Shown in pieces: positions 1 to 54,911 of a stretch of DNA of 64,000 nucleotides (the stretch's first letter is position 1; each line of letters opens with the position of its first letter). The notes under the pieces are model-generated. The model had not been told where the DNA came from, did no database searches, and worked only from the letters and a program-made list of their open reading frames with translations. The DNA is from Roseomonas sp. (GTDB lineage: Bacteria; Pseudomonadota; Alphaproteobacteria; Acetobacterales; Acetobacteraceae). The position numbers and the translations under genes were made by a program. The stretch is from assembly GCA_020249265.1 (NCBI GenBank), contig JADCGA010000002.1, positions 1 through 64,000 on the forward strand, in the 5' to 3' direction.

Positions 1-582
1 CCCGGCGAGCATGCCGCCATCGTGCCGCAAGCGCTGTGGAACGCCGCCCATGCATTGCTGACCATCAGCCCACGAACACGCGCCAACCGGACGCGCTGCC
101 AGACTCCTGCTTTGCTGCGTGGGTTGATTTTTGACAGCGATGGGCGGGCCATGTCGCCCACGCATACGCGGGGCCGGCGCGGCCAGCGATACCGCTACTA
201 TGTCAGCCAGTCGGTGCTGAAGGGTAGCGCCGCGGACGGGCCGGCCATTGCGCGCATCTCTGCCGGCGAAATCGAGGGCATCGTGATCGCGCAGCTGCGC
301 GGACTGTTGCGCCAGCCTGAGATAGTCCTGGGCGCCTGGCGCGCGGCACGGTTGGCGGCGCCGGGCCTGACAGAGGACGAGGCCCGGTTAGCCCTGGAAC
401 GGCTCGACCCCCTTTGGGAGGAGCTCTTTCCCGCCGAGCAGACGCGGATCCTCCGGCTTTTGGTGGATAGGGTGGATCTTGGGCCGGATGGCGCCGATGT
501 GCGGATGAAGCTGGAGGGGCTATCCAGCCTGGCGCGGGAATTGGCCGCCCCTGGCGCGGACTGGGCGAGGGCTGCCGCATGA
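1..582 (+). CDS. Serine recombinase, C-terminal part (partial)
   Basis: The reading frame is open from the first base, so the gene begins upstream of the window and only about 193 C-terminal residues are visible. The segment containing GRRGQRYRYYVS, followed by a helical tail with LFPAEQTRILRLLVDRV, matches the C-terminal region of large serine recombinases of the 'recombinase family protein' type. The cysteines of the classical zinc ribbon are absent here, as in a common proteobacterial branch of this family. These enzymes cut and rejoin DNA to integrate, excise or invert elements. The catalytic N-terminal domain is outside the window, so activity cannot be judged. The stop overlaps the next start (ATGA), implying translational coupling to the HTH gene. 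Confidence 0.8.
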   Translation, partial: PGEHAAIVPQALWNAAHALLTISPRTRANRTRCQTPALLRGLIFDSDGRAMSPTHTRGRRGQRYRYYVSQSVLKGSAADGPAIARISAGEIEGIVIAQLRGLLRQPEIVLGAWRAARLAAPGLTEDEARLALERLDPLWEELFPAEQTRILRLLVDRVDLGPDGADVRMKLEGLSSLARELAAPGADWARAAA

Positions 583-974
583 CCGGCGAGGCGCAAATGC
601 TGACCATCCGCGTGCCGCTAGCGCCCCGGAAGCTGCCCAGTGGGCGGAAGCTGGTGCTGACGCCAGAGGGGAACGCGATCGAGGCGCCGGCAAATGTGGA
701 CATCACGCTGGTCAAAGCCCTAGCGCGGGCCTTTCGCTGGCGCCGGATGATCGAAACGGGCCGGCACGCGACCGTCGCCGAGCTGGCGGCGGCGGAGAAA
801 ATCAATCCTTCCTATGTCAGCCGGGTGCTGCGGCTGACGCTGCTTTCGCCCACCATGGTCGAGGCGATACTGGCGGGGCGGCAGCCGGAGGGGGTGACGC
901 TGCCGGCGCTGCTGGAGGGGGTGCCGGTGGGGTGGGGGGAGCAGCGGGGTGTATGTTGGGGAATCATCGCCTAG
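579..974 (+). CDS. Recombinase-associated HTH protein
   Basis: A 131-residue protein coupled to the recombinase by a 4-base overlap. Residues about 62-86 (TVAELAAAEKINPSYVSRVLRL) look like a ParB-like helix-turn-helix, followed by the conserved-looking tail VEAILAGRQPEG. Similar small HTH proteins are often found directly after serine recombinases in alphaproteobacteria. I infer a role in DNA binding or regulation of the element, but no function is established from the sequence. The last third occurs again, decayed, at 3312-3434. The C-terminal GVCWGIIA is probably not conserved. Confidence 0.65.
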   Translation: MTGEAQMLTIRVPLAPRKLPSGRKLVLTPEGNAIEAPANVDITLVKALARAFRWRRMIETGRHATVAELAAAEKINPSYVSRVLRLTLLSPTMVEAILAGRQPEGVTLPALLEGVPVGWGEQRGVCWGIIA

Positions 975-1151
975 CTGCCGCTGTCTTGAGCAGATTATGG
1001 AGACTTTTCCTGGCGTCTCCAAAAATAGCAACCAGCCCGAAGGCAGGCCTCTTTCATGTTTCACTTCAAAAACACAATACGTTGATGCTTGGGAAGAAAG
1101 CTACTAGCGTTCAGCTTATCTTGGAATAACCAAAGCTAGCGCGAGGCATCT

Positions 1152-3095
1152 TTGAAAATCTCCACCATCCTGGACCATATCGACAATGGTCACATGGCTT
1201 TGCCGGAATTTCAGCGCGGCTACGTTTGGAATCGGGACCAAGTGCGGGGTCTATTCGATTCGCTTTACAGGCGTCACCCGGTAGGAGGATTACTCGTCTG
1301 GGCCACTGAAGCCCAGACCGCAGCTCACCGCGGCGAGGGTCAGCTCGCGTCTGGAATTGTGAAGCTGCTTCTCGATGGACAGCAGCGCATGACAACGCTT
1401 TACGGAGTTATTCGTGGCCGTCCGCCTAAATTTTTCGATGGCCAAGCCCAGGCATTCACAAGCCTTCAATTCCACCTGGGGTCGGAGACATTTGCATTCT
1501 ATCAGCCCATTAAGATGCAAGACGACCCGCTTTGGATTGATGTCACGGAACTGATGAAAGCAGGCACGGCGGGCTTGGGGGCATTTGTCGCTCGGCTGTC
1601 AACTTTACCTCAGCATACGGCACAGCTGGGTGATTTTTTTGGCCGCCTCAGTAAACTATTGAGTATCGCAGACATTGATCTCCATATCGAAGAAGTTACC
1701 GGGGCGGATAAGACTCTAGATGTCGTGGTGGACATATTTAATCGGGTAAATAGTGGTGGCACCAAGCTTTCGAAGGGTGACTTAGCGTTGGCGAAAATCT
1801 GCGCCGAATGGCCGGAGGCTCGCGATACGATGAAAGCAAAGATCAGGGAATGGTCTGCCGCAGGTTATCAATTTAATCTCGATTGGCTCTTACGTTCGGT
1901 GAATACCATATTGACCGGAGAGGCAAAATTCAGCTTTCTCCACGATAAGGACGCCGTTGCTATCAAAGACGGCCTGAAACGGACCAAGAAGCATATAGAT
2001 ACGGTTTTGAATCTTATTTCTGGGCGATTGGGCCTTGATCATGATCAGGTGTTTTTTGGACGTTTTGGTGTCCCCGTGATGGTTCGCTACCTTGATCAAA
2101 AGACGGGAACCCTCAATGCTAAAGAGCGCGATAAACTTCTTTTCTGGTATGCGCAGGCCGGAATGTGGGGTCGCTTTTCTGGATCAACGGAAACCGTAAT
2201 TGATCAGGACCTCGCGGCTTTGGAAGGAAAAGACGGAGGCCTCGACGCTCTCCTTGAGCAGTTACGCCTCTGGCATGGCGGACTAAAGGTTGAACCTGGG
2301 CATTTTACGGGGTGGAGTCTTGGTGCGCGCTTCTATCCCGTTCTTTATATGCTAACGCGAATGGGCGGCGCTCGTGATTGGGGTACAGGCCTCCCCCTCA
2401 AGGCCACTCTTCTCGGTAAAATGAATCGGTTAGAGGTACATCATATTTTTCCGAAAGCTCAACTATATAAATTAAAACATCGACAACCAGAAGTGAATGC
2501 GCTGGCAAATTTTTGCTTTCTCACTAAGGATACAAACCTTAGTATCAGTGACCGTAGGCCTGAAAATTACTTCCCCGAGATAGAGGAAAGTCATCCGGGC
2601 ACCCTGGCCTCGCAGTGGATTCCCATGGACCCTGCACTTTGGAAAATGGACCGCTATCTCGATTTCCTCGATGCGCGTAAGGCTTTGCTCGCGGAAGAGG
2701 CCAACAAGTGTTTCGCTGATCTTTTGCATGGCGAGACTCATTGGGTTGGAGAAGTTGCTCCGGTATCCGCCAGTTTTCCGGCTGTCATCGGAGGGCTGAC
2801 AAGCGAATCCGAGGAACTTCAGATCGAGGAACTGAATGAGTGGATTGGGGCGAAAGGCTTGATGCGAGGAGTTATCGCCTTTGACTGCTCTGACCCGAAT
2901 ACGGGCAATCAACTCGCGGTCTTTGATCTCGCTTGGCCCGAAGGCCTGCAACAGGGCCTTACAGCGCCTGTCGCTCTGCTGCTCAATGAAACTACAGATA
3001 TTGTGGCCTTCGCAAGCGCCCATGGGTTTCGTTGCTTCACCTCCGTCGCAGCCTTGAAGGCTTACGTATCCTCGGAGATTCTGCAGCCGGATTAG
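1152..3095 (+). CDS. GmrSD-like DUF262/HNH endonuclease
   Basis: A 647-residue protein. The DUF262 (GmrS/ParB-like NTPase) domain is marked by PEFQRGYVW at residues 18-26 and LLLDGQQRMTTLYG at 72-85, with FNRVNSGGTKLSKGD further on. The second half has a DUF1524-like HNH signature, HHIFPK at about 430-435 with asparagines at 453 and 462. This is the single-chain layout of type IV, modification-dependent GmrSD restriction enzymes, which cut modified phage DNA in the cytoplasm. About 130 C-terminal residues after the HNH region are unassigned. The TTG start is chosen because GCGAGG lies a few bases upstream and the frame matches the family N-terminus. Base composition is clearly more AT-rich than in the neighbours, suggesting separate acquisition. 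The target is unknown. Confidence 0.8.
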   Translation: MKISTILDHIDNGHMALPEFQRGYVWNRDQVRGLFDSLYRRHPVGGLLVWATEAQTAAHRGEGQLASGIVKLLLDGQQRMTTLYGVIRGRPPKFFDGQAQAFTSLQFHLGSETFAFYQPIKMQDDPLWIDVTELMKAGTAGLGAFVARLSTLPQHTAQLGDFFGRLSKLLSIADIDLHIEEVTGADKTLDVVVDIFNRVNSGGTKLSKGDLALAKICAEWPEARDTMKAKIREWSAAGYQFNLDWLLRSVNTILTGEAKFSFLHDKDAVAIKDGLKRTKKHIDTVLNLISGRLGLDHDQVFFGRFGVPVMVRYLDQKTGTLNAKERDKLLFWYAQAGMWGRFSGSTETVIDQDLAALEGKDGGLDALLEQLRLWHGGLKVEPGHFTGWSLGARFYPVLYMLTRMGGARDWGTGLPLKATLLGKMNRLEVHHIFPKAQLYKLKHRQPEVNALANFCFLTKDTNLSISDRRPENYFPEIEESHPGTLASQWIPMDPALWKMDRYLDFLDARKALLAEEANKCFADLLHGETHWVGEVAPVSASFPAVIGGLTSESEELQIEELNEWIGAKGLMRGVIAFDCSDPNTGNQLAVFDLAWPEGLQQGLTAPVALLLNETTDIVAFASAHGFRCFTSVAALKAYVSSEILQPD

Positions 3096-3311
3096 GCTAG
3101 ATGCAGCCTTGATGTTGGCAAGTACTCCGAGGGGGCGTTACTCAGAAGGCGAAAGAGGCCGGTGCTAGCCTTGACTGCGCAAACTTGGTGCCAGCAAGCC
3201 CACGTAAATCCGCACCCGGAACGAGATCAAGCTCCAACTAAGGCCATGGCCCGCAGCCGGGTTGCGCATTTTGGGAGGAATCGTGGAGGCGCAGCTGGCT
3301 GCAAAAGGTTT

Positions 3312-3434
3312 CGCAGGCTCCAATTCATTTTTCCGTCAGGCATGGCTGCGGCGATCTTGGACGGGCGGCAGCCGGAGGGGGTACCAGTGGGGAGGGAGAA
3401 GCAGCGGTTAACTTGGTCGGCCATTGCGGTTTGA
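3312..3434 (+). pseudogene. Decayed tail of a second HTH gene
   Basis: In one frame this stretch reads RRLQFIFPSGMAAAILDGRQPEG, then GVPVGREKQR, and ends at TGA. It aligns with the tail of the HTH protein at 579-974 (LRLTLLSPTMVEAILAGRQPEG and GVPVGWGEQRG), with about nine residues deleted in between. The nucleotide match is also clear, for example gggcggcagccggaggggg in both. No HTH domain precedes it, so it is a remnant of another copy of the recombinase-linked gene and not a functional gene. Confidence 0.65.
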
Positions 3435-3443
3435 TCCATTGGC

Positions 3444-6353
3444 TCACCACCCCTCAGCCATGAGCTGGGAGACGTCACGCCTAGAAATAACGCGCGAGCA
3501 CGATTCCCATCCCGCGTGCCAAGCACGCTCTTCGGCGGTAAGCTCGGTCCCGGTCGCTGTTCCACCCCATCGCAGAGAAAAGGCATTCGCGGTGCGCCGC
3601 TTCTCAATGAAGGTGTCGAGCTCGCGGTCTAGCGCGGAGGCGTCGTCGATCCAGCTGTCCTCGATGACGTCAGGGAGTTGGCCAAACAAGTCAAAGCGGT
3701 CGCGCATCCTTCTTGAGAGCCGATCATAGACGACTTCATCTCGCGTGCCAGCGTACACCATGTTCAGCATGTCCACGGTATCGCGGCGCTGACCGAACCG
3801 CTTTATTCGACCAATTCGCTGCTCGAGGCGCGATGGGTTCCATGGCAGGTCCATGTTGACCAAGGTGCCCAGTGTCTGAAGATTCAATCCTTCACAGGCG
3901 GCGTCAGTGGCGACAACAAGACGAATAGCGCCCTCACGAACGGTTCGCTTTATGTCGTCACGCGGGCAGGCGACAAACTGACCGTCGCGGAACACGCCTG
4001 AGCGACCTGCGCCAGCGTAAACAGCAACCGGGGTCGTTGGCAGTTCTGCGGCAAGCGAAGTCGCTGCCCAAAATACAGTGTCGAAAAACTGGCTGAAGAC
4101 GATAGCGCCGTGGCGCAGCCAATCGCGCTCGATGAGAAAGTGCCGCAAGACGCGCCACTTCGGATCGGCGGCTGGACTGTTGCGCGGTTGGGCTACGATG
4201 TCCTCCAGAAGGACGATGGCTTCACGCAATTCTTCCTTCTCGTCGTCCATGTCGCTACCGAGTGCGGCAAGCTGATCGGGCAGTAATTCCTCATTGTCGT
4301 CTTCCCGGAAGGAGTTCCCAGCGCGCAGGCGCTCAAAGCCGATTGCCTCCGGAGATTGGCCGGCTGCTGCACCACGCGGATCAGGGTCGCCCAGCAGGAC
4401 GCGGGATGTCGCCAATCCTGACGCAGCGGACGAACATATCCGCTGAAGGAGGAGGCTCTTTATGTACCCAGCGCCGCGCTTGCGTGATGCCAGCGCCTCG
4501 CAGAAACGCCCTGCCGCCGCAAGCGCAGCTTCCAACTGTGGTGAAGTCGCGATGCCTCGACCGCCCTCTGTGAAGAAGGCCTTTGTTTGAGGGTCGCGCT
4601 CGGCATCGTTCGGATGCAGATCCACGGCGACCGGTCTCAGCAGCCCCGCTTGCTCCAGGTCTTTGCGACGGCGGAGAATTGTGTGCCGAACTATCGGGTT
4701 ATTGTTCTGTAGAAAGCCTAGACCGTCCCGATCGTACATAAGCCGGTCTTCAATCTCCTCGCGCGCCATGCCTGCTCCAAGCGCGGTCCAGGGACGGTCA
4801 GTAGAGAAGGTCCCGTCGTCGAGGTTCAAGTCTTGTCGCAGGATCCCGAACACCGGGTCGCGCTCGCGGCGGCTGGGGATGGCGTGACGCAGCCACTCCC
4901 AGGCGGCGTCGACACCTCTGGGCCGCACACGGCCAGAAACTATGTCCACCGCATCCGGCAGTCGGCGCCAAGGGCTGAGCGGTGGACCGAGAACGTGCCC
5001 AGCTCCTGCATCAAGAATTTCGAGCAAATCCCAAAGTTCGCGGATGTCGGTCTGGATTGGGGTTGCCGTACCCAGCAGCACGTGTCGCGCCTTCGACGCA
5101 GCCCGGCCCATAAACCGGAGAAGATTGTTCGGCCGGCGATCGCCGTTGCCCTCTGTCTGCGCCCGCGCCCGGTGGGCCTCGTCGAGGATCAATGTGCCGA
5201 AAGCAGCGGATTCACCGCGGCTGGCGCGGCGGCGTAGCAATACCTCGGCTTCGGGCGCTTGTTTAAAAATGAGGCCTGTTGAGACGATGGCGATGCGACA
5301 CGGGCAGCGCGCGACGCCCTCCGCTCCGCCGCCACGGATGAAGTTGCCGTCCTGGTCGACCCAATCCTTTCGCGCCGAGAGCCACCGCGCTGATGGTATC
5401 CCTAGCCGATCCTTCAGCTCTGTCTGCCACTGCTCGCAGAGGGGAGCCGGCGTCAGGATCAAAGCTGGGCCGTCGCCGAGCAAGCTGGCGACGAGCGCGG
5501 ACGTTGCGAGCGAAAGGGTCTTTCCGACCCCAACCTCGTCGGCGAGCAGCAGCCTCGCCTTGCCATACCAATCCCGGTGTCTGAGGAACTCAGCGACAAA
5601 TGCCTTCTGCCAAGGCTGCAGGCCTTCACCTGCGCGGGCGATTGGCGCCTCCGCCATGGCCGCCGCCGGCAACTGCCAGGCCGTGCAATCAGGCACTGAG
5701 ATCTCTTCACGCTCGGCGCAGCGCTCCACTTCGCGGATGATTGCCTGGGGCAATGGCACCGCCTTGTCCCAAAGAAACTCGAATTCCTCCTGGGTCCAGG
5801 CGATGCCCTCTGGGGAAGTGTCTTCCCACAGGATCTCGTAGTGCTTTCGCCAGGCATCGAGCGTCTCGTTTACTGACCCCATGAAGCAGGTCTTCGCGCC
5901 ACTCCGGGCCGTGATGATGCCGGCCTTGCCGTGGACCAATGGTGCGGTGGTGCGGTCAACCACCCGGATCTGAACCTTCGCTTCGCCATTCCCATCCCGG
6001 GCGGAAAGCAACTCAGCCAGCTTGCGGTAGCGCGTCCGGTGCAGCAGGCTTTCGATTTCTAGCGGCAACTCGCCACGGCCGCCCTCCCACCAGCGGGCAA
6101 CCAGCGCTTGTTCTCGGATAGCCTGCGAGGTCCGCAAGTCATCGGGGTCGAGGTCTGAATTGCAAACAATACGCACCCGATCGATTTTCGCGATCTCTTC
6201 CGCCGCGACCTCGAAGATCGAGCTACGGAAGTACCCCGCAATCCGGTCATAGGTTGCCGCATCCCGCAAACGGTCCCTCAGAAAGGCGTGGTCCAGCCGT
6301 TCGCGGCGAGACGAGAAGCGGCGAAGCGTCGCAACAGGGGACTCTGACGTCAT
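3444..6353 (-). CDS. PLD-SNF2 helicase of antiphage operon
   Basis: A 969-residue protein. The N-terminus (about 1-200) resembles a phospholipase D-like domain with one HxK motif (HGK at 141-143, then MGSVNET). The rest is an SNF2-type superfamily 2 motor: DEVGVGKT at 272-279, DEAH at 391-394, GTATPIQT, and a C-terminal helicase half with SRLEQRIGRIKRFGQ. It probably translocates on DNA and may nick or sense it through the PLD part, as the effector arm of the operon. The ATG at 6353 is preferred because GAGG precedes it by about 7 bases. A GTG at 6461 would add 36 residues lacking family features. It is the last gene of the four-gene operon, 136 bases after the methyltransferase stop. Related proteins include BrxHI and DrmD of BREX and DISARM. 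Confidence 0.85.
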   Translation of the reverse strand: MTSESPVATLRRFSSRRERLDHAFLRDRLRDAATYDRIAGYFRSSIFEVAAEEIAKIDRVRIVCNSDLDPDDLRTSQAIREQALVARWWEGGRGELPLEIESLLHRTRYRKLAELLSARDGNGEAKVQIRVVDRTTAPLVHGKAGIITARSGAKTCFMGSVNETLDAWRKHYEILWEDTSPEGIAWTQEEFEFLWDKAVPLPQAIIREVERCAEREEISVPDCTAWQLPAAAMAEAPIARAGEGLQPWQKAFVAEFLRHRDWYGKARLLLADEVGVGKTLSLATSALVASLLGDGPALILTPAPLCEQWQTELKDRLGIPSARWLSARKDWVDQDGNFIRGGGAEGVARCPCRIAIVSTGLIFKQAPEAEVLLRRRASRGESAAFGTLILDEAHRARAQTEGNGDRRPNNLLRFMGRAASKARHVLLGTATPIQTDIRELWDLLEILDAGAGHVLGPPLSPWRRLPDAVDIVSGRVRPRGVDAAWEWLRHAIPSRRERDPVFGILRQDLNLDDGTFSTDRPWTALGAGMAREEIEDRLMYDRDGLGFLQNNNPIVRHTILRRRKDLEQAGLLRPVAVDLHPNDAERDPQTKAFFTEGGRGIATSPQLEAALAAAGRFCEALASRKRGAGYIKSLLLQRICSSAASGLATSRVLLGDPDPRGAAAGQSPEAIGFERLRAGNSFREDDNEELLPDQLAALGSDMDDEKEELREAIVLLEDIVAQPRNSPAADPKWRVLRHFLIERDWLRHGAIVFSQFFDTVFWAATSLAAELPTTPVAVYAGAGRSGVFRDGQFVACPRDDIKRTVREGAIRLVVATDAACEGLNLQTLGTLVNMDLPWNPSRLEQRIGRIKRFGQRRDTVDMLNMVYAGTRDEVVYDRLSRRMRDRFDLFGQLPDVIEDSWIDDASALDRELDTFIEKRRTANAFSLRWGGTATGTELTAEERAWHAGWESCSRVISRRDVSQLMAEGW

Positions 6354-6489
6354 CGGACCTCGCCGGAAAAGTGGACCGTCTGCGCCCAGGTGGAAAGTGG
6401 GGCGGAAGACTTCGGCGCCGCACCAAACGTGGTTAAGGAGCAGCTCTGGAACAAACTGCACCTCACCCCACGCATGGCGGCCCGATCCC

Positions 6490-9400
6490 TCAACCCACCT
6501 GGACCCGTTCGGTCCGGATCAATTCCGCAAGCACGCGTGCGGCTTCCGCTTCCTCCGGACGGGATGTCTGCTGGCTACGGCCGAGCCAGGTCGCGATCGC
6601 CATTGCGTCGGCGCGGCGGCGCATCCACTCCGGGCCGAATAGATCACGAAGCGCATGGATGGCGGCAGCGCCGGCCTCGCCTGGGTCCTGCTGGGTTGCT
6701 GCGGCCTGGACCAAGCCGCGGACGGCGAACAACACCGGCCGGATCAGGCCGCCGGCGAATTCGTGCCCCTCCATCACCGCCCGCCCGAAAGCGACCGCGC
6801 CCCGCAGACGCGCATGGTTCGCGCTAGCCTCCTCCATGAGCGGGCGCCAATCGGTGCAGCGGAATGCCTTGGCAAAGGTCTGGTACTCGTCGAGCTTGGC
6901 AGAAGTCCCTGATGGGCGGGCTCCCTCGATCTCGGCCATCTTCAGCCAGAACCGCTCACTGGCATTGTTAAGCCGCTCCCACAGGGCTCTGTCGAAACCT
7001 GCGGGCACCAGCAGCTCGGCTGCGGTTTGCACGGCGAGCTCAATCATGCGGCCGACGATGCCGGTCTCGCCACGCCGGTCCCCTTGGGCGCGCGGGCGCA
7101 GTGCCGCGCGGGTCATGTCCTCGCCGTCGATCTTCGTGTAGCCGGTCAAAACCTCCAGCGCAGCGGCATAACCGGCCATCTGAATGTCCGAAGAGGAGAA
7201 GGCGTGTTCGCCCCGGTCGCGCAGGGCCTCCGCGTCCAGCGCCAGAAGGCGGTTGACCTGCTCCTCGACGCGGAACTTCAACTCCGGCACGAGGTCATTG
7301 GTCCAGGCGCTCTCCTCGCCTGCGCGTTTCCGCAACACCAGCAGGACGGTGCCCTGCACATGACCTTCGGCGCGAAAGGCGTTCTCCGCTTCGGTCGAGA
7401 CATACCAAGCCGCGCTGACCTGCAACCCGGCAGACCAGACGATTTCGGCCATATCGGCCCAGACCTGGGCATCCTGGTGAGTGAACATGCACACATGCAG
7501 TCCGTTCGCCGGCATCGCCGCCGCCATGGCGGACATTGCCTTCGCCATATCGGCTCGGAATTTCTCGCCACTGCCTTGGATGGCATAGGGCCGCAGACTG
7601 TCCCAGGTCCACTCGGCGAAATCGCCCGGTGCATTGCGGCGCAGCCAGGCGATGAAGAACTCGGTGATCTCGTGATAATGGACAGCGTCTGCGTAGGGCG
7701 GATCGTAGATCCAGAAATCGGACTGACATTCAAGGGCAGTTGCCGAGTGTACCGAAAGCCTACTCATCCCATTAGAAGGCGAGAGAGGTGCCTGCTCCAC
7801 GATGAACTCGAAAAGGCCAGCAAACGATCTTCCGGCGTAGCTATAGTTCGTGTTGAAAGCCTGATTGTAAAAGACGTTTTGGACCGTATCGGCAGACGGT
7901 GCGACGCCGATTTTTCCAGCGTGGCCGACGTTCCATCTGCAGAGCCGCGATGTCCTGTCGAGCACCGTGCACAAGGTGAGGGCCATGGCGGGTTCGCGAA
8001 TCTGGTCCTTCAATAGCGAGAGCATCAGCAGTTGACGCGGCGTAAATAGGTGATGCCAGTGAGTCCAGCCACGCGTACGAATCGGCTCGTCGGTCTTCTC
8101 GCCCGGCTCGATCCGCATGTCGGGCACCAACCCCGCCGCCTGCCAGCCAGCTATCCGGTCCTCTACCAGCGCACGTAGCCGCGCCTCGCGTGCTAAATCT
8201 GCAGCGTCCGGGGCAGCGAACCACGTGGTCGGCCTCGCCTTGCCCTCGGCTAGGTCCTCCGCGCTCATCCACTGGATGCAGAACAACCGCTCCAGAAAGA
8301 TGTCACCACCGCGCCAAGCTCCCGGCGCGCTACCGGGTAGAACGGCCACGGCTGTCGCATCCCATTCCGGCTCGATGGGCGCCACGTCATGCAATCCCCA
8401 GGGACGCAGAAGGTTTGCTGGCTCGCCATCGGACCCTGGCTGACCTTCGCCATCACGCCGCAGTCGCCCCATGGGAATGCGCCACTCCCGCTCCTCACCA
8501 CCGGGGGTAGGGGCCAGGCGAAAAACCACATCGGGGTCCATTCGGGCCGACTTGACCACAGTTCCAAGCTCCGCGGCCTTCATGGTCGCAGCCGAAGCCC
8601 CGTCCTCGATCAGGATGTCGAAGCGCTTGCGGAGGTGATCCGGCACCAGCCGCGCCACGGTCCGGCGATTGCGACTGATCAACAGGGAAGGCAGCAGCGG
8701 CACGCGCCAGCCGGTCTGTGGGTCCACCACCTCGATGCAATACAGGAAGGCCTTCGCGCGGTTGCCACGCTCGTCATGCTCTATCCCGAGGCGTGTAATC
8801 TCAGCGTCCACCTCTCGTGCCACGCGGCGCTGTTCCTCAGCGACGCGCGCGCGGGTCTCCGGCGATGCACCGATGATGTTCAGTGCGCCCCAAGTCAGCA
8901 TGGCCGCCACGGGGTTCAGGTCGCTCGCCACGACGCCACAGCCAAGGCGTGCGGCCTCGAAGGGGATTGACCCGCCACCAGCAAAGGGATCACCCACCAC
9001 TGGCGCATGGCCAAAGCGGGCGACGCCAAGTTGCCGGATCAACTCTGGCAAGGTTTCCGCCGTAGTGCCCAGCCGCGCATTCGCCTCGCCCAGGACGCCC
9101 GCATAAAGAGGGTCAGCCGGATCGCCGAGCGTTTCGATTTCCTCAGGTCGTTTGCATACGAACACCTTCTCGGCGAAGCTCATTGCGTCGAAGGCGCGCG
9201 CCTTTAGCGCCTCGCGCTCCGCCTTGATACCGGCGCGTTCCAGCTTCCGCTCGGCTGGACGCAGGTGCGACACATTGATTTTGCGCCAGCGCCACCGCTG
9301 TGCGCCGGTTGTTGGGGGTTCCTCCGCTTCGTCGCCGCCCTCTTCCTCTTCATCATCTGCTTCCGCGTCGGCTGCCAAAGGCTTAGGCTCGATGTGCGGT

Positions 9401-9759
9401 GCCCAAGCCAGCTCATCGCCTGGCAGCTTTGCGACGATGTGGGCTGGCTTGATCGTTGGATTTCGCCGGCGCAAGCCGCGTTCATCCATGGCCAAGAGAG
9501 CTTCCAATAGTGCGAGGTCGCCAGCGGCATCCTTGGTCGCTGGCAACAGTGCGGCCAGAATGCATGCCCTTACAAGCACAAGCGGCTTTCGGCCCTTCCA
9601 ATAGCTACCGAGCGCGGTCAGCGTTTGCCCGGCACCGCTCTTGCGTTCCTTCTGCGCTTCCACCCCGATTTTCTGTGCAGGAAACACGCGCTCGATCAAA
9701 GAGGGCTCGTCGCGAATGGAGAAAGGCGCCAAGCCGGGCGCGAGGGGAGCCTCCGGCAT
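6490..9759 (-). CDS. DUF1156 DNA methyltransferase
   Basis: A 1089-residue protein. It starts with a divergent DUF1156 segment (LIERVFPAQKIGVEAQKERKSG, about 21-42). A glutamate/aspartate-rich linker lies at 127-148. The AdoMet-binding motif DPFAGGGS is at 257-264 with SDLNPVA at 279-285, and the catalytic DPPY of amino-methyltransferases at 686-689. The family methylates adenine N6 (or cytosine N4) and would mark host DNA as self. The roughly 420 residues between the AdoMet motif and DPPY are unusually long and could hold target recognition. The start lies 3 bases after the DUF3780 stop, so the two are co-transcribed. Target site and modified base cannot be read from sequence. Confidence 0.88.
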   Translation of the reverse strand: MPEAPLAPGLAPFSIRDEPSLIERVFPAQKIGVEAQKERKSGAGQTLTALGSYWKGRKPLVLVRACILAALLPATKDAAGDLALLEALLAMDERGLRRRNPTIKPAHIVAKLPGDELAWAPHIEPKPLAADAEADDEEEEGGDEAEEPPTTGAQRWRWRKINVSHLRPAERKLERAGIKAEREALKARAFDAMSFAEKVFVCKRPEEIETLGDPADPLYAGVLGEANARLGTTAETLPELIRQLGVARFGHAPVVGDPFAGGGSIPFEAARLGCGVVASDLNPVAAMLTWGALNIIGASPETRARVAEEQRRVAREVDAEITRLGIEHDERGNRAKAFLYCIEVVDPQTGWRVPLLPSLLISRNRRTVARLVPDHLRKRFDILIEDGASAATMKAAELGTVVKSARMDPDVVFRLAPTPGGEEREWRIPMGRLRRDGEGQPGSDGEPANLLRPWGLHDVAPIEPEWDATAVAVLPGSAPGAWRGGDIFLERLFCIQWMSAEDLAEGKARPTTWFAAPDAADLAREARLRALVEDRIAGWQAAGLVPDMRIEPGEKTDEPIRTRGWTHWHHLFTPRQLLMLSLLKDQIREPAMALTLCTVLDRTSRLCRWNVGHAGKIGVAPSADTVQNVFYNQAFNTNYSYAGRSFAGLFEFIVEQAPLSPSNGMSRLSVHSATALECQSDFWIYDPPYADAVHYHEITEFFIAWLRRNAPGDFAEWTWDSLRPYAIQGSGEKFRADMAKAMSAMAAAMPANGLHVCMFTHQDAQVWADMAEIVWSAGLQVSAAWYVSTEAENAFRAEGHVQGTVLLVLRKRAGEESAWTNDLVPELKFRVEEQVNRLLALDAEALRDRGEHAFSSSDIQMAGYAAALEVLTGYTKIDGEDMTRAALRPRAQGDRRGETGIVGRMIELAVQTAAELLVPAGFDRALWERLNNASERFWLKMAEIEGARPSGTSAKLDEYQTFAKAFRCTDWRPLMEEASANHARLRGAVAFGRAVMEGHEFAGGLIRPVLFAVRGLVQAAATQQDPGEAGAAAIHALRDLFGPEWMRRRADAMAIATWLGRSQQTSRPEEAEAARVLAELIRTERVQVG

Positions 9760-9762
9760 GGA

Positions 9763-10377
9763 TCAGTCCTCCGGGGTCGTGTCGAGAAGGCCGAGGGCCA
9801 TCTGCGCACCTTTCGGCTTGAGGGGCCGTGGCGCGCGCGGCGCCGCCGCAGGGCGTCGGTCCGGCCCGGAGGAGAGCAGCAGAGCCAGCCCTCGCCGAGG
9901 CTTCGCCATGGCATCCGCGGCACCGCCAGCTGAACTAGCCACGCGGCCGAACAACCACCAACGTTCCTCTGGCCGCAGCGCTGCCCATGCAGCGGCCACC
10001 GCATCAACATCCTCTTCCTCGGCGGCCTCGACCGCCCAGGCCAGCACAACGACCTCCTTGCCAAGGAGACGCTCGACACGGTTCTCACCGGCCATCCAGC
10101 GGGATGCCGGGAGGTCCTGCTCCTTCAGCCGATCATTCATCGCCTGCTTCGCCACGTTGGCGATGGCGTTCCAGCGAACCCGCGGCAGAACACAGCGCGC
10201 CAGGCGGTCCGGGCCGCCAGCCTGGGCGACGCCCCAATCCTCTTCCAGCAGCACCTCGCCGGTACGGCTTTCGGGGATCGTCACGAGCACATGATGGACG
10301 AACATCTCCGCCGGGCAGCCGAAGCCCGTTGTGCTGGCGGGTTTGAGAGGGCGGGGTTTCCGCGACAATTCGTTCAC
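9763..10377 (-). CDS. DUF3780 antiphage-associated protein
   Basis: A 204-residue protein recognised as DUF3780 by GFGCPAEMFVHHVLVTIP near the N-terminus, then RWMAGENRVERLLGKEVVVLAWAVE and LRPEERWWLF. No catalytic motif is visible and its biochemical role is unknown. The family is found almost only beside DUF499 and DUF1156 genes, so I infer a structural or adaptor subunit of the same complex. Its start overlaps the DUF499 stop by 4 bases and its stop lies 3 bases before the methyltransferase start, which fixes it inside the operon. The C-terminal 50 residues are proline/arginine/alanine-rich and probably disordered. Confidence 0.8.
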   Translation of the reverse strand: MNELSRKPRPLKPASTTGFGCPAEMFVHHVLVTIPESRTGEVLLEEDWGVAQAGGPDRLARCVLPRVRWNAIANVAKQAMNDRLKEQDLPASRWMAGENRVERLLGKEVVVLAWAVEAAEEEDVDAVAAAWAALRPEERWWLFGRVASSAGGAADAMAKPRRGLALLLSSGPDRRPAAAPRAPRPLKPKGAQMALGLLDTTPED

Positions 10378-13300
10378 TGCTTCACCATGGTGGCGGGACT
10401 CTCCACCGGCTCGTGGAGGGCGTCCACCAATGCCAACAGGTCGGCACCAGTCGGAAAGTCAAGCCGGTCAAGTCGCAAGGTCACCGGTGCGCGCTCATCA
10501 CTCACCAACTCGCGCAGCAGCGTCGCGGCGCGTTCAATAGCGGCGCCCTCCGCGCCCGCATCCCGGCCAATGCGGAGCATGGCGCTGGCATCACCCAGTC
10601 CTACGGTGAGGATGGCGCCGAAAGCTTGGGCGCGCGCGGACTTTATCTGATTGATCAGCTCGAATGCGCCCTGCGTATCAGTCCGCTCAACGCGCTTGAG
10701 CAGGGAGGATGCCTTGCCTGCGTCCACATAGTCACGAAGGGTCAGGGGCTTTTCTTCCACACCCTGACGCTTTGGCGCGAAGTCGAACGAGTTCTCGGCG
10801 GAGATGTCACCGTCTTCCGCCAACACGCGCAGAAGGCCGCCACTCAATGGGATCGGCACCGCTCCGACATAGGCGGCGCCCATGTCACGCGGGCTGGTTC
10901 CACCGAGCGTCCATCGCAGGGATCCGGCCGGTACCGCCTTCAATTCGACAACGCGCCCACCCGATGTCTCGCGCGGCTCGTGGAGGATCGTGATCTCATT
11001 GCGCCACAGCACTGCGTCGCCGGTCGGATGATCGCCAGTCGAGTCCTCCGCCAAGAACCACAGACGCAGCTTGCTTGTGGCGAAGGACAGCTCCTTCAAC
11101 TCGGGGCTGGAGGGCAGGGCCGGGCCGGTGTCCGACCAACGGATGACCGGGCGGGGGCCGGCATCGCGAGCTGTAACCTCGATCCGCGCTTCTCCTGAAT
11201 TGCTATCGTAAGCGATGCGGGAGACGGAGACAGTAGTACGCGCTTTCTCGAAAGGACCTCGCTCGATGAAGCCGTCCGCCGTCGGACGCCAGCGGGCTTG
11301 CGATTCTGCGTAGCGGCGCAGCGCTTCCAGCCCCTTCGCAGGCAGCCAGGCGAAGCGGGCGGTAGAGCGGGCATTCATCTCGATGTCGTGCCACTTCACC
11401 TTCTTGACCCCACCTGGCCAAAGCTGGTCCTCGATGCGTCCAAGCAGTGCCTCTGCCTGCTTCTCCGGCTCCGGGATGAGCTTACTTGCCTTGCCCGGGC
11501 CAAGCGCTGCCTCGATCTGAGGCTCACCGATGAGTCGTGGGGGAGCGTCTTTTGGCCGCTCGACACGAAGGTCGAGCTTTTGTTCCAGCAGGTCTGGTTG
11601 GCGCGTGCGGGGAGAGAGACCTGGATACCAAATCTTGTTGAAGACCTGCTCAATGGTTGTGAGGAGGTCGAATTCCGCCTGTTCCAGCTTCTCCTGTACC
11701 TCGTCAATTTGAGGATGGTCGCGGCCGAGATCCTTGAGGACTTTACGCGCGGCGTAGAGGCGACGAGCGGCCCCGTCCATGCTTGCAAAGCGCGTGACAT
11801 CCCCTGTCACGATCAGCAGGTTATTCTTCTCAACGACGCCCGAGAACAGGGTCGCCGCGGCGTTCGGCGGACTGCCGCTATCGGGCGACATGACCAGTAG
11901 CGTGCGTTCCCGGCGAAGGTCGATCGCGTCCATTTCCGGCAGCGCCAAAACTTTCTGATACGCATTGCCGGTCTGCGGTGCGAAGACCTCCTCAAGGCGA
12001 CGGACAAGCTCGCTGTGAATGCGTGGCTCCGGCGCATCTTTAGCCTCTTTTTGAAGGCGGCGGGTTAGGTTCTCCTGGTTGGTGAAGCGATAGGTGCCCT
12101 CGTCCTTGCCGTCGCCATGGAGATACCAGGCACCATCCATGCTTCGCAGCGCGTCAAAGGCAGTGCCGAATTCGGTAACGGTGCGGTTCGGCGCCATCAG
12201 GCACTCGATGAGCTCCGAGCGGGTCAGGCCACGTTTGCTTTCCGGGCCGGAGCCGATTGATGCGAAGAGCAGGGCGACCGCAACCTGGGTACCAGCATCA
12301 GACCCTTGGGCCGCGTTGATAGTCTCAGCCTTGGCTTGTCCCTGGTTGGCGATGTCGATGGCTACGGCCTCGCGCATCGGTTCGAGGAATGGCTCGCTCC
12401 GCAGACTGGTGTCCGCCATATCCGCGTGCTGGACGCCAATGAGGTGGACATCGTTTGGCCGCCCCTCCTTGTAGACACCGCGCACGATGCGACCGGCGAG
12501 GCTGAGCAAGCCGCGGGTCTGACGGAAGTTCTCGTTATTTCGGAAGGTGGCGACGAGGTCCGCGAAGCGCGGATGAAACGGGTAGCAGCCGTGAATCTCC
12601 TCAGCGAGGCGTTCCGGTGACTTCTGCACCGCGCGTGCCTTGACGGCTTCGTCCATCGCCTTGACGTAAGCGTCGGCCACGGCGTCGATCTGATTGGGCT
12701 TGGCCAGCGTCTTGAAGAGGCGCTTCCGTAGGATCGCGAAGATGTCGCCACCCTGGAGCGAGACGGGTTCAATGGGGCGAGCGCTACGAAACGCCTCGCG
12801 TTCCAGATCACGAACCGCCTCTGGATAGGCGCCGCCCGAGAGATTGGATGCAACGATGCAGGTGCTTGGCGTCTTTCGCGCCGCCTCGAATAGATTGGCA
12901 AGGGCGTAGCGTGCCACGTTGGCGAGAGAGCCGTCGCCAACCTTCTGAGTTACTGCGTTGTCGAACCACGCTGGCAGCTCATCGAACATGATCAGTGTCG
13001 GCTCGCTGCCGAGCAGTTCCTTCCAATCGCTTTCGTCAGGTCCGCGTGGCCCCTCTGCCCAAAACCGGCGAAACAACTCCGGTTTCTTCAGCTGGAGAGC
13101 AATCTCGCCCCAGAGGTAATGGGCTGGATTGCGCCGGCCAGTAACGGCAACTACTCGAGCGGCGCCTTCAAACTCGTCCCCTAGGCCGGTCTCACTGAGG
13201 ATACGGCGCCGCAGGGTTGGAAGTTGGGCAAGCAGGCCGAGCGCAATCATCATGTGGGTCTTGCCGCCTCCCATTGCTTGCGAAAGCACAAAGGACGGCT

Positions 13301-13511
13301 GTTCGCCCTTGGCCGCGAGGCGACGAAAACCAAGTTCCAGGAGCAGGCGCATCCCGCCAGTGATATGATTGGTGGCGAAGAATTGGCTGGCGGCTTCGGA
13401 AGACGCCGCAGCAGCAGCCAGCGCGTCGATCAGGTCATCGATCTCAGGGGCGGTGTCTTCACGCCGGACGTGATCGTGAACTTCGCAGGCGTCGCGGACG
13501 GTTAACATCAT
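10374..13511 (-). CDS. DUF499 AAA-like ATPase
   Basis: First gene of the operon, 1045 residues. A Walker A motif (GGGKTH, 81-86) and Walker B (LIMFDEL, 173-179) lie in an N-terminal AAA-like ATPase domain, followed by a sensor-like STCIVASNLSGG near 216-227. RGLLSLAGRIVRGVYKE further on is typical of DUF499. The family has been linked to the BrxC/PglY ATPases of BREX. A role in assembling or powering the methylation/restriction complex on DNA is likely but inferred. Two adjacent ATG codons (13511 and 13508) can serve as start, and no strong ribosome binding site is seen. Base composition is near that of the core genome. Confidence 0.85.
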   Translation of the reverse strand: MMLTVRDACEVHDHVRREDTAPEIDDLIDALAAAAASSEAASQFFATNHITGGMRLLLELGFRRLAAKGEQPSFVLSQAMGGGKTHMMIALGLLAQLPTLRRRILSETGLGDEFEGAARVVAVTGRRNPAHYLWGEIALQLKKPELFRRFWAEGPRGPDESDWKELLGSEPTLIMFDELPAWFDNAVTQKVGDGSLANVARYALANLFEAARKTPSTCIVASNLSGGAYPEAVRDLEREAFRSARPIEPVSLQGGDIFAILRKRLFKTLAKPNQIDAVADAYVKAMDEAVKARAVQKSPERLAEEIHGCYPFHPRFADLVATFRNNENFRQTRGLLSLAGRIVRGVYKEGRPNDVHLIGVQHADMADTSLRSEPFLEPMREAVAIDIANQGQAKAETINAAQGSDAGTQVAVALLFASIGSGPESKRGLTRSELIECLMAPNRTVTEFGTAFDALRSMDGAWYLHGDGKDEGTYRFTNQENLTRRLQKEAKDAPEPRIHSELVRRLEEVFAPQTGNAYQKVLALPEMDAIDLRRERTLLVMSPDSGSPPNAAATLFSGVVEKNNLLIVTGDVTRFASMDGAARRLYAARKVLKDLGRDHPQIDEVQEKLEQAEFDLLTTIEQVFNKIWYPGLSPRTRQPDLLEQKLDLRVERPKDAPPRLIGEPQIEAALGPGKASKLIPEPEKQAEALLGRIEDQLWPGGVKKVKWHDIEMNARSTARFAWLPAKGLEALRRYAESQARWRPTADGFIERGPFEKARTTVSVSRIAYDSNSGEARIEVTARDAGPRPVIRWSDTGPALPSSPELKELSFATSKLRLWFLAEDSTGDHPTGDAVLWRNEITILHEPRETSGGRVVELKAVPAGSLRWTLGGTSPRDMGAAYVGAVPIPLSGGLLRVLAEDGDISAENSFDFAPKRQGVEEKPLTLRDYVDAGKASSLLKRVERTDTQGAFELINQIKSARAQAFGAILTVGLGDASAMLRIGRDAGAEGAAIERAATLLRELVSDERAPVTLRLDRLDFPTGADLLALVDALHEPVESPATMVKQ

Positions 13512-13691
13512 GTTCGGGGGCTATCCAGCTCTTCGGAGACGATATGTGTAATGATAACAGATTTGAGGCGGTGGGTGATAGGCACGGCGTCAGTCTTCTG
13601 GAGAGCGGGACGCCCAATGGAACTGGCGGTGGAGGTTGAGCGAAAACGTATTGGGCCCGCAGGCCCGCCGTACCGCCAGTTCGACTTTTTT

Positions 13692-13780
13692 GTACGGATT
13701 TCGTGCAAGTGCCATTCGAACCACGCCACATTTCCGCGACAGGAAATTCTTTTAATTTCAATGACTTGCGAAATCCGTAC
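13692..13780. repeat. Inverted-repeat element, 17-bp arms
   Basis: The left arm GTACGGATTTCGtgCAAGT (13692-13710) is the exact reverse complement of the right arm (13764-13780), apart from two extra bases (tg). The 53-base loop contains a second small palindrome, gaaatt/aatttc, at 13743-13759. It could be a MITE-like remnant, a recombinase binding site or a structured leader. No clear target-site duplication flanks it. Confidence 0.6.
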
Positions 13781-13915
13781 TAAATCGGCCAAGTCAACAG
13801 GTTCGGAGAGAATTGGCCCTCGGAGAGCGATTTTTGGGCTTTTCGCGGTTTGGCCGGTCAACAGGTCCGCCCCAAAAACCCCAGGAATCCTGCCATCCAG
13901 CGGGGGGGACGGACG

Positions 13916-13926
13916 GGCGGAGAGAG
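13916..13926 (+). repeat. Copy of tRNA-Ser 3' end, possible att remnant
   Basis: ggcggagagag here is identical to 13944-13954, which encodes the 3' acceptor strand and the CC of CCA of tRNA-Ser(CGA). Both copies continue with one different base and then gg. Duplicated tRNA 3' ends are typical footprints of tRNA-targeted integration. At 11 bases this one is suggestive only. Confidence 0.35.
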
Positions 13927-13942
13927 CGGATCAGTTTGAAAC

Positions 13943-14032
13943 TGGCGGAGAGAGTGGGATTCGAACCCACGGTACAGTTGCCCGTACTTCGGTTTTCGAG
14001 ACCGACCCGTTCGACCGCTCCGGCACCTCTCC
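13943..14032 (-). tRNA. tRNA-Ser (anticodon CGA)
   Basis: The reverse strand folds as a class II tRNA. The acceptor GGAGAGG pairs with the 3' strand ending CTCTCC, with discriminator G and encoded CCA. The anticodon loop CTCGAAA reads codon UCG. The long variable arm (TACGGGCAACTGTA) and GGTTCGAATCC T-arm are typical of serine tRNAs. Its 3' end faces the accessory region, the usual orientation for integration into a tRNA gene. Confidence 0.95.
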
Positions 14033-14111
14033 AGCGGGATAGGGAAGCACGCCGTTCCCCGAACAGATCTGCCCCTATAATTGCCTCCGCCCTCGGACGC
14101 AATCGCTGGCG

Positions 14112-14140
14112 TTGACGTGGGGGGCCCGCCCGTCTATATG
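14112..14140 (+). promoter_or_regulatory. Sigma-70 type promoter of rplU-rpmA
   Basis: TTGACG at 14112-14117 and TATATG at 14135-14140 are separated by exactly 17 bases. This lies about 100 bases before rplU, leaving a GC-rich leader with an inverted segment (cggcccggcgctccgcgcccgg). It is the best vegetative promoter in the window. Confidence 0.6.
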
Positions 14141-14241
14141 ACCTCCGCTTCCGGCCCGGCGCTCCGCGCCCGGGGCGGGCGGTTTTTGCCTTTGGTGAGG
14201 GCCGGGCAGTCACGCTTTTGAAAGAGTTTCGGGGCATCCCC

Positions 14242-14559
14242 ATGACCTATGCAGTTATCCGCACCGGCGGCAAGCAATACCGCGTCACGCCGGACGCCGT
14301 TCTCACCGTTGAAAGGTTGGATGCCGAACCCGGCGCCACCGTCACGATCCATGACGTTCTGGCAATCGCAACCGAAGCGGGCTTGGCCATCGGCGCGCCG
14401 ACCGTGCCTGGCGCCAGCGTGACGGCGACCGTGGTGGAACAGAATCGCGGCGACCGTATCCTGATCTTCAAAAAGCGCCGCCGGCAGAATAGCCGCCGCA
14501 AGAATGGCCATCGCCAGCACCAGACCGTGCTGCGTATCGCCTCCATAAACGCAGCCTGA
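14242..14559 (+). CDS. rplU: 50S ribosomal protein L21
   Basis: Ribosomal protein L21, which binds 23S rRNA in the large subunit. It has the classic start [15 protein letters not shown] and the basic stretch [16 protein letters not shown] near residues 77-92. The 105-residue length is normal. The frame is open further upstream, but the family N-terminus places the start at the ATG at 14242. It is followed 18 bases later by rpmA, the usual L21-L27 pair. Confidence 0.96.
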
Positions 14560-14577
14560 TCGGGAAGGAACCTAGCC

Positions 14578-14847
14578 ATGGCACATAAGAAAGCAGGCGG
14601 TTCTTCGCGCAATGGTCGCGATTCTGCCGGTAAGCGCCTCGGTGTTAAGCTGTTCGGCGGCCAGACTGTGAATGCCGGTTCTATCATCGTGACCCAGCGC
14701 GGCACGAAGATGATCCCAGGCGCCAATGTCTATGCCGGCCGCCAGCACAGCCTGCATGCCGCGGTTGATGGCCGTGTGGTGTTTGAACGCAAGGGTGAAG
14801 ACCGCGTGCATGTTACCGTGCAACCGCTGCCGCAGGCTGCGGAATAA
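14578..14847 (+). CDS. rpmA: 50S ribosomal protein L27
   Basis: Ribosomal protein L27, 89 residues. It starts [20 protein letters not shown], the conserved N-terminal tail that reaches the peptidyl transferase centre, and no cleavable N-terminal extension is present. [10 protein letters not shown] and the DGRVVFE segment are also typical. It lies in the rplU operon and a strong terminator follows 28 bases after the stop. Confidence 0.97.
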
Positions 14848-14875
14848 CCCTAGCTTCCAGTATATCGCTGAAGGC

Positions 14876-14906
14876 GAGGGTCCCTAGGGGCCCTCGTTTT
14901 GTTTTT
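14876..14906 (+). terminator. Intrinsic terminator after rpmA
   Basis: gagggtccc and ggggccctc form a GC-rich hairpin at 14876-14895 around a two-base centre, followed by gttttgttttt. It ends the rplU-rpmA transcript before obgE. Confidence 0.8.
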
Positions 14907-14931
14907 GGGGCCGTGATGCCCCACGGATTGA

Positions 14932-15930
<999 letters not shown>

Positions 15931-15963
15931 CAGGCCCCGCTTTGCCATGGTAAGCGCAGCGGT

Positions 15964-18546: not shown

Positions 18547-18554
18547 GGCAGCAA

Positions 18555-18866
18555 ATGGCACGCATCCGTGATTTGGCGCGAATCTGCAAAAGCAAGAATG
18601 CCGGGCCGTTTGATCTGACCATTGATATCGTGTTCGACGATAGCGCGCTCTATCAGAAGGTGCGTGCCTCTGGCGTCATCACCGAAGCCTTGTTTGCGCG
18701 GCTTTATGGTGTGGCGGCGAAGGATGTGTTGCTGACGCCTTATGATGCCGCCATGGCGATCAAGGCGACCTTTCCGCGCCTGGTACCGGCGGGCGGTATT
18801 GGTGATACCGATGTCTATGGCTGCCAGCAGCATGCGCCGCTGCTTGATGTTGATATTCCTGTCTGA
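18555..18866 (+). CDS. DUF4387 protein
   Basis: A 103-residue protein matching DUF4387: ARICKSKNAGPFDLTIDIVF at the start and TDVYGCQQHAPLLDV near the end. Biochemical role unknown. The family almost always accompanies AtuA/DUF1446 proteins, sometimes fused to them, so the two probably form one functional unit. The ATG at 18555 is chosen over an in-frame TTG at 18543 because GAGG lies 7 bases before it. Confidence 0.8.
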   Translation: MARIRDLARICKSKNAGPFDLTIDIVFDDSALYQKVRASGVITEALFARLYGVAAKDVLLTPYDAAMAIKATFPRLVPAGGIGDTDVYGCQQHAPLLDVDIPV

Positions 18867-54731: not shown

Positions 54732-54911
54732 AAATGTTTGTCCTGCCCGCTGGCAAGCATGAAAATGCCACAAACGCGCCCCAAATGACGAATTGCTGCG
54801 TCGCACAATAAATTCCTGATCTTTTATTGCGCGGTGGGGCAGGTGATTCCCCCGGAAACACTTCTGGACTAGGGTGCGCTCCCCGTCGCTAGACATTGAA
54901 GGATGAGAACC

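What the first reader, a model, noticed from the sequence alone, without database searches (positions are those of the whole stretch)
3444..13511. Four-gene antiphage operon: DUF499 ATPase, DUF3780, DUF1156 methyltransferase, PLD-SNF2 helicase
All four genes run on one strand with couplings of 4 bases overlap, 3 bases and 136 bases. The set has a self-marking enzyme (DPPY methyltransferase), a BrxC/PglY-family ATPase, a SNF2 motor with a PLD-like domain and a DUF of unknown role. Unlike BREX it has no PglZ or BrxL, and unlike DISARM it has no DrmA, DrmB or separate DrmC. From memory, these families are labelled antiphage-associated in public databases, but their mechanism is not described to my knowledge. 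It sits in a mobile, tRNA-bounded island.
Basis: partly seen in the sequence, partly recalled or inferred. Interest (0 to 1): 0.75.

Follow-up and report, generated by a model that had tools for sequence, protein, structure and literature searches.

The report
Known four-gene phage-defence operon, mobile carrier
The four genes are a complete copy of an already catalogued bacterial system thought to mark the cell's own DNA and destroy unmarked invading DNA; here it appears to ride on a mobile element that carries different defence gene sets in related bacteria.

Summary
Observation confirmed. Minus strand: DUF499 ATPase (10374-13511), DUF3780 (9763-10377), DUF1156 methyltransferase (6490-9759), HKD/PLD-SNF2 helicase (3444-6353), spaced -4, +3 and +136 bases. 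They hit the PADLOC set PDLC02189-02193 and NCBIfam NF042961-NF042964. This is the Type-2 DUF499-centred BREX-related system of PMC12839542 (passages read), by recall also Gao_RL: not new. Best mechanism, untested here: restriction-modification-like; the methyltransferase marks self, the ATPase senses through a C-terminal beta-sandwich/RRM-like module, the SNF2-nuclease attacks, DUF3780 (no PDB fold match) reads or adapts. The ATPase branches with Bradyrhizobium and Acetobacteraceae MAGs, far from other members. The new part is the carrier: tRNA-Ser | conserved end | cargo | 131-aa protein | serine recombinase. Of 18 such stretches that I chose in congeners, 16 hold PADLOC-type defence genes. 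The nearest relative, L004, has the same operon on this kind of carrier at another tRNA-Ser. In other lineages the DUF3780-methyltransferase junction often holds DarTG or other toxins.

The parts
10374..13511 (-). DUF499 AAA+ ATPase, 1045 aa, first gene; Walker A GGGKTH (81-86), DE (177-178); [quoted passage not shown]
9763..10377 (-). DUF3780 protein, 204 aa (GTG start), 4-base overlap with the ATPase gene; modelled as four strands plus five helices, no PDB fold match
6490..9759 (-). DUF1156 methyltransferase, 1089 aa; GGGS (261-264) and DPPY (686-689) invariant in 59 relatives
3444..6353 (-). HKD/PLD-SNF2 helicase, ATG start 6351-6353 (longer GTG frame to 6461); HGKAG...GSxNET nuclease signature and SNF2 motifs intact
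13661..13942 (.). conserved end of the carrier element between the operon and the tRNA 3' end; related sequence in 24 of 35 genomes of the genus, own included
13943..14032 (-). tRNA-Ser(CGA), inferred integration point; synteny with most congeners begins at its 3' end
22..582 (+). C-terminal part of the carrier's serine recombinase, cut by the contig edge (97% to residues 258-450 of the relative in L112)
579..974 (+). 131-aa protein that follows the recombinase; homologue found in 18 of 18 carrier stretches read and in L004
1152..3095 (+). GmrSD/DUF262-like protein, second defence-type cargo gene; not taken as part of the four-gene system (no tblastn hit of 80 bits or more in any of 81 loci)

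Best explanation
It is a complete Type-2 DUF499-centred BREX-related system (Gao_RL by recall), acting as a multi-subunit restriction-modification machine. Proposed steps: (1) the DUF1156 methyltransferase methylates adenines of a host motif (inferred from DPPY and family); (2) the DUF499 ATPase assembles on DNA and uses its C-terminal two-beta-sandwich plus RRM-like module to examine it (domains modelled, role inferred); (3) DUF3780 acts as reader or adaptor between modification state and the motor (inferred); (4) on unmarked DNA the SNF2 motor translocates and its N-terminal HKD/PLD domain cuts (motifs shown, activity inferred). The cassette was probably acquired horizontally as cargo of a serine-recombinase element that sits at tRNA-Ser genes.
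For: Family matches over nearly full length. Gene order complete in 56 of 80 relatives (57 with L009) and partial in 23. Catalytic signatures invariant in 69 (ATPase), 59 (methyltransferase) and 42 (helicase) relatives. The C-terminal ATPase model (mean pLDDT 90.8) shows the domain order that PMC12839542 gives for 53% of Type-2 BR taxa. HmaA, HmaB and HmaC models score far lower (112, 82 and 128 bits), and the ATPase groups with 22 Type-2 relatives, apart from two Hma-like ATPases of the same genus. In the genus, the methyltransferase is found in the window's own genome and in none of 34 others at E<=1e-50, and the operon lies on a carrier shared with L004.
Against: No activity, methylome or phage assay was available. 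Three of four NCBIfam scores fall below their cut-offs. The D of the classical HKD motif is T here and only 3 of 42 relatives have D, so nuclease activity rests on H, K and GSxNE. No sequence relative of the ATPase, methyltransferase or DUF3780 was found among solved structures. DUF3780 has no fold match in the PDB, so step 3 is a guess; the site of step 1 is unknown. The ATPase model has a modest pTM (0.53) and its fold search never ran. The two Hma-like outgroup rows have very long branches.
Confidence: 0.72

Rival explanations
1. BREX-like exclusion without cutting: the complex recognises unmarked DNA and blocks phage replication by bound motor and ATPase; the HKD fold is structural.
For: Relationship to Type-3 BREX parts is argued in PMC12839542; the HKD aspartate is not conserved.
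Against: H177, K179 and GSxNE are invariant in 42 of 42 relatives, which a purely structural role would not need.
Confidence: 0.2
2. Reversed logic: the complex attacks modified (phage-type) bases, with DUF3780 as the reader, and the methyltransferase tunes or licenses it.
For: PMC12839542 reports DUF3780 fused to ASCH/PUA and RAMA reader domains in some members and names detection of modified phage bases as one option.
Against: A methyltransferase match of 80 bits or more is on the same stretch as DUF3780 in 74 of 80 relatives (the other 6 include short contigs), which fits self-marking better; no reader fold was found in DUF3780 itself.
Confidence: 0.12
3. Its main selected role is to keep the carrier element in the cell (RM-type addiction), phage defence being secondary.
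For: It sits on a mobile element whose cargo in congeners is often RM-like.
Against: Carrier cargo is varied, including Ssp, DrmD-type and Hma-type genes; no post-segregational killing data exist.
Confidence: 0.1

Closest known systems
Type-2 DUF499-centred BREX-related (BR) system (PMC12839542)
   Same: Same four families; standalone DUF3780; HKD nuclease N-terminal to the SNF2 motor; DUF1156 methyltransferase; ATPase ending in a two-beta-sandwich plus RRM-like order
   Different: The window copy is on a divergent branch with L002-L004; best-segment identities to the other loci are 28-46% (ATPase), 40-52% (DUF3780), 37-64% (methyltransferase) and 41-52% (helicase). Tightly coupled, no inserts
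Gao_RL (Gao 2020; DefenseFinder) - recalled
   Same: Believed to be the same four-gene set; its helicase is listed as SF2 SNF2 in the Hachiman preprint
   Different: Gene list not checked; original paper not held
Hma / Type-1 BR system
   Same: DUF499-type ATPase, DUF1156-type methyltransferase, SNF2 helicase
   Different: By PMC12839542 its locus has only ATPase, methyltransferase and helicase, and a C-terminal REase rather than HKD serves as nuclease; low scores of the window proteins to Hma models
Type-3 BREX
   Same: Related ATPase, methyltransferase and helicase according to PMC12839542
   Different: No PglZ, BrxA or BrxF gene in the set; the ATPase is DUF499
DISARM
   Same: SNF2 helicase (DrmD-like, 124 bits), PLD-type domain, methyltransferase
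   Different: No DrmB; DrmA only as a weak helicase-domain match; DrmD score far below its NCBIfam cut-off (164 vs 610)

Membership tests
Type-2 BR system | DUF499 AAA+ ATPase | tested here: met
   Pfam PF04465 above cut-off, PADLOC DUF499 851 bits, NCBIfam NF042962 1068 (cut-off 1200); Walker motifs
Type-2 BR system | Standalone DUF3780 in the core locus | tested here: met
   PF12635 178 bits; separate ORF 9763-10377
Type-2 BR system | DUF1156 N6-type methyltransferase | tested here: met
   PF06634 and NF042963 above cut-off; DPPY invariant
Type-2 BR system | N-terminal HKD nuclease fused to SNF2 helicase | tested here: met
   PF13091 at 95-231, SNF2 and Helicase_C C-terminal to it; HxK...GSxN invariant, the D not
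Type-2 BR system | ATPase C-terminus with two FnIII-like sandwiches before an RRM-like domain (53% of taxa in the paper) | tested here: inconclusive
   Secondary-structure order of the model agrees, but the fold comparison did not run
Type-2 BR system | DUF499 ATPase falls in the Type-2 clade | tested here: inconclusive
   Groups with 22 Type-2 rows against two Hma-like ATPases, but those have very long branches
Type-2 BR system | Phage defence / DNA methylation activity | not testable with these tools
   no assay
Hma / Type-1 BR system | HmaA, HmaB and HmaC models as best match | tested here: not met
   112, 82 and 128 bits against 1097, 1055 and 851 for the Type-2 models
BREX | PglZ gene in the operon | tested here: not met
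   No PglZ among the families listed for P0001-P0005 (PADLOC, where 12 of 37 families for P0004 are not shown; Pfam; NCBIfam)
DISARM | DrmA plus DrmB genes | tested here: not met
   No DrmB listed for P0001-P0005 (same limit for P0004); DrmA only as a helicase-domain match of 80 bits to the SNF2 protein

The most novel reading that the evidence does not exclude
The operon is one interchangeable cassette of an undescribed family of serine-recombinase elements that sit mainly at tRNA-Ser genes and are specialised for carrying phage-defence gene sets (Type-1 and Type-2 BR, Ssp, DrmD-type, type I and III RM, Mza-like). Cargo lies between a recombinase plus 131-aa protein and a conserved ~150-bp end beside the tRNA. 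In parallel, the DUF3780-methyltransferase junction of the system itself is a recurrent slot for toxin modules, above all DarTG whose DarT start overlaps the DUF3780 stop.
Probability: 0.45. Interest if true: 0.55.

Novelty: new member of a known kind. Interest (0 to 1): 0.33.

Why it matters
The operon itself adds a divergent member to a widespread system whose mechanism, as far as I saw, is proposed but not shown, and whose small DUF3780 subunit has no fold match in the PDB. The more useful point is its vehicle: one recombinase-and-end architecture holding many different defence systems at tRNA genes would show how whole systems are exchanged within a genus, and gives a simple way (recombinase to conserved end) to find further defence cargo. 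The toxin slot suggests a back-up killing response built into the same operon in many lineages.

Tried and rejected
Novel four-gene combination: rejected, consecutive PADLOC models and a published survey exist. Hma, BREX or DISARM membership: rejected on scores and missing genes. GmrSD neighbour as a fifth component: no tblastn hit of 80 bits or more in any of 81 loci, although one relative (L041) has a different GmrSD protein inside its operon. Phage-borne copy: no match of the methyltransferase in 50,697 phage records at E<=1e-5. Plasmid copies: 15 plasmid records with distant DUF3780 relatives, none covering 80% of it. Fold of DUF3780: Foldseek best E-value 0.5, no meaningful match. The pdb_via library was not available. 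Fold search of the ATPase C-terminal model never got a slot. ARAGORN's 'tRNA-???' at 59893-59980 found no support in Rfam. Two paired recombinase/end stretches (L130, L138) gave no defence gene in the ORFs scanned singly (3 of 6 for L130, 6 of 9 for L138), so not every carrier-like stretch holds defence cargo or is a real element. Paper search for the carrier (at least 3 of 6 terms) found 0 papers; this is one search only. Searches for the identity of Gao_RL in papers gave the Hachiman preprint (passages read) and paper as relevant listings, and a Shewanella paper that I did not open.
Full report
OBSERVATION. The four genes exist as described. DUF499 ATPase 10374-13511, DUF3780 9763-10377, DUF1156 methyltransferase 6490-9759 and the PLD-SNF2 protein ending at 3444 all run on the minus strand. 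The couplings are a 4-base overlap, 3 bases, and 136 bases when the helicase starts at ATG 6351-6353. That start agrees with where conservation begins and with 968-aa ATG-started helicase ORFs in L003 and L004. NCBIfam scores are above the cut-off for the methyltransferase and 2-14% below it for the other three.

WHAT IT IS. PADLOC carries these families as consecutive models (PDLC02189-02193) and NCBIfam as NF042961-NF042964, labelled anti-phage. PMC12839542 (Nucleic Acids Res. 2026; I read passages) names this arrangement the Type-2 DUF499-centred BREX-related system, reports it in 1120 taxa with DUF3780 in 98%, and proposes an RM-like mechanism. From memory it is also Gao_RL of Gao 2020; that paper is not held, and the Hachiman preprint (passages) only shows that Gao_RL has an SNF2-family helicase. 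One search for at least two of the three DUF names found one paper. So the system is known, and this is a new copy.

INTEGRITY. In relatives taken from the 80 fetched loci, the Walker A and DE residues (69 sequences), GGGS and DPPY (59) and core helicase residues (42) are invariant and all present here. The nuclease signature is HGKAGxI...GxxxFxGSxNET; H, K, G, S, N, E are in 42 of 42, but the classical D is E in 26, T in 10, D in 3 and other in 3, and T in the window. It is a family feature, not decay of this copy.

STRUCTURE. DUF3780, modelled with 54 sequences (mean pLDDT 83.6), has four strands and five helices, as PMC12839542 describes. Foldseek against the PDB gave no match better than E 0.5, and a profile search of PDB sequences gave none at E<=1. 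[quoted passage not shown] This is the order PMC12839542 gives for 53% of Type-2 taxa. I judged it from secondary structure only; the fold search never ran.

PLACE IN THE FAMILY. In a tree of 25 ATPases the window groups with L002 (Bradyrhizobium MAG), L003 (Acetobacteraceae MAG) and L004 (Proteobacteria MAG) at 100/99 support on a long branch beside the other 19 Type-2 rows (22 of 69 relatives used). Two Hma-like ATPases from congeners fall outside but have very long branches, so the rooting is unsure. In the genus the methyltransferase is found in the window's own genome and in none of the 34 others at E<=1e-50, which fits horizontal arrival. The host itself is unnamed.

MECHANISM. Shown: intact motifs, conserved order, modelled domains. 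Inferred: adenine methylation of self, sensing by the ATPase C-terminus, DUF3780 as reader or adaptor, cutting by the HKD-SNF2 protein. I favour the RM-like reading (0.72) over non-cutting BREX-like exclusion (0.2), attack on modified DNA (0.12) or mainly addiction (0.1); these overlap in part and are not meant to sum to one.

ISLAND. Window 13900-15900 was searched in 59 genomes: the own one, 34 other members of the genus and 24 of the class. Where a listed match in a congener spans the tRNA, it begins in most at 13939-13946, the 3' end of tRNA-Ser(CGA) at 13943; in five congeners (G004, G006, G011, G019, G020) it begins at 13900-13915, inside the end sequence described below. Of 18 congeners where the DNA beyond that tRNA end was read, one (L091) had none, 2 share more than 100 bp with the window (L090 at 82%, L101 at 77%) and 15 share at most 24 bp, mostly tRNA. 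It is a turnover hotspot. The 282 bp between operon and tRNA (13661-13942) recur at 89% beside tRNA-Ser(GGA) on own contig C31 and in congeners, and related sequence is in 24 of 35 genomes of the genus, own included.

CARRIER. At the window's left edge lie the end of a serine recombinase (22-582) and a 131-aa protein (579-974). The recombinase is in 29 of 35 genomes at E<=1e-40, own included; the window piece matches residues 258-450 at 97% and own contig C68 holds residues 1-304 at 96%. I picked 18 stretches in congeners where recombinase and conserved end lie on one contig 6-18 kb apart (L111, L112, L126-L141). This was a selection, not a census. All 18 have the 131-aa homologue. ARAGORN found tRNA-Ser beside the end in 8 of the 18 stretches as cut and tRNA-Glu in 1; for L111 and L112 the tRNA-Ser lies just outside the cut; for the other 7 no tRNA was seen in the stretch. 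PADLOC matches at E<=1e-10 to defence enzymes occur in the cargo of 16 of 18: Ssp proteins in L111 and L132 (SspC scanned singly in L132), type III methyltransferase in L112, MzaE in L126, type I RM parts in L127, L128, L136, L137, L139, L140, DrmD in L129 and L134, HmaB/HmaC-like plus PLD helicase in L131, Hma in L133, HKD+Snf2 in L135, type II/IIG methyltransferase in L141. L130 and L138 gave none in the ORFs scanned singly (3 of 6, and 6 of 9) apart from a LolE-type membrane match in L138. As a control, 34 ORFs of at least 200 aa from window 14.9-63.2 kb gave 3 family matches, one member each (mad3, PDC-M51B, BrxL), against 366 families among 75 of 112 cargo ORFs. That contrast is biased: the 75 were picked by eye, overlapping models inflate family counts, and the control is one region of one genome.

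SAME CARGO, SAME CARRIER ELSEWHERE. In L004 the order is tRNA-Ser(GGA) 6364-6454, conserved end 6422-6623 (69%; the match includes part of the tRNA), the four genes 6870-16850, the 131-aa homologue (58%) and the recombinase 17362-18636 (75%). No recombinase was found in L001-L081 other than L004, so none in L002 or L003. The operon is thus seen on this carrier type at two different tRNA-Ser genes.

TOXIN SLOT. In 75 relatives with both genes, the space from the DUF3780 stop to the methyltransferase match exceeds 450 bp in 41. Of 97 ORFs in these spaces, 12 match Macro, 9 DarT, 6 Phd/YefM, 5 YafQ, 5 DUF3368, 5 Uma2, 3 PemK, 3 SLFN_AlbA_2, 2 PIN and 1 HepT-like (the first 25 of 34 families were shown). 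In 9 loci the DarT-like frame (64% or more identical to the L051 DarT, or that protein itself) overlaps the DUF3780 stop by 4 bases. The words DarT, MazF, VapC and macro domain do not occur in the main text of PMC12839542 (supplements not read), so I have not seen this slot described, but embedded genes in defence operons are a known theme (search listing). The window copy has a 3-base gap there and no insert.

VERDICT. The finding is real and correctly read but already known: new member of a known kind. Interest comes from DUF3780 as an orphan fold and from the carrier.

Noticed in passing
window 1-13942; L111, L112, L125-L141, L004: Family of serine-recombinase elements, mostly at tRNA-Ser genes where a tRNA was seen, with a conserved end and interchangeable, mostly defence, cargo (16 of 18 chosen stretches).
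   Followed up: partly
L039, L043, L051, L060, L062, L064, L065, L068, L069 and others, between DUF3780 and methyltransferase genes: DarTG and other toxin-antitoxin modules embedded in Type-2 BR operons; DarT start overlaps the DUF3780 stop by 4 bases in 9 loci.
   Followed up: partly
window 1152-3095: GmrSD/DUF262-like protein with a C-terminal HHxFP stretch (HNH-like, judged by eye); independent cargo.
   Followed up: no
L131 and L133 (congeners G003, G015): Hma-type or Hma-like DUF499 systems on the same kind of carrier; L131 pairs HmaB/HmaC-like proteins with a PLD helicase.
   Followed up: partly
   Followed up: no
own contig C68 (L125): Beyond the recombinase lie XRE-, primase- and ParB-like ORFs (judged by eye), so the element may be phage-like.
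   Followed up: no
window 54648-54735: suhB/mmgR small RNA just above its Rfam gathering score (41.2 vs 41).
   Followed up: no
window 59893-59980: ARAGORN reports an odd tRNA-??? not supported by Rfam; likely false.
   Followed up: partly
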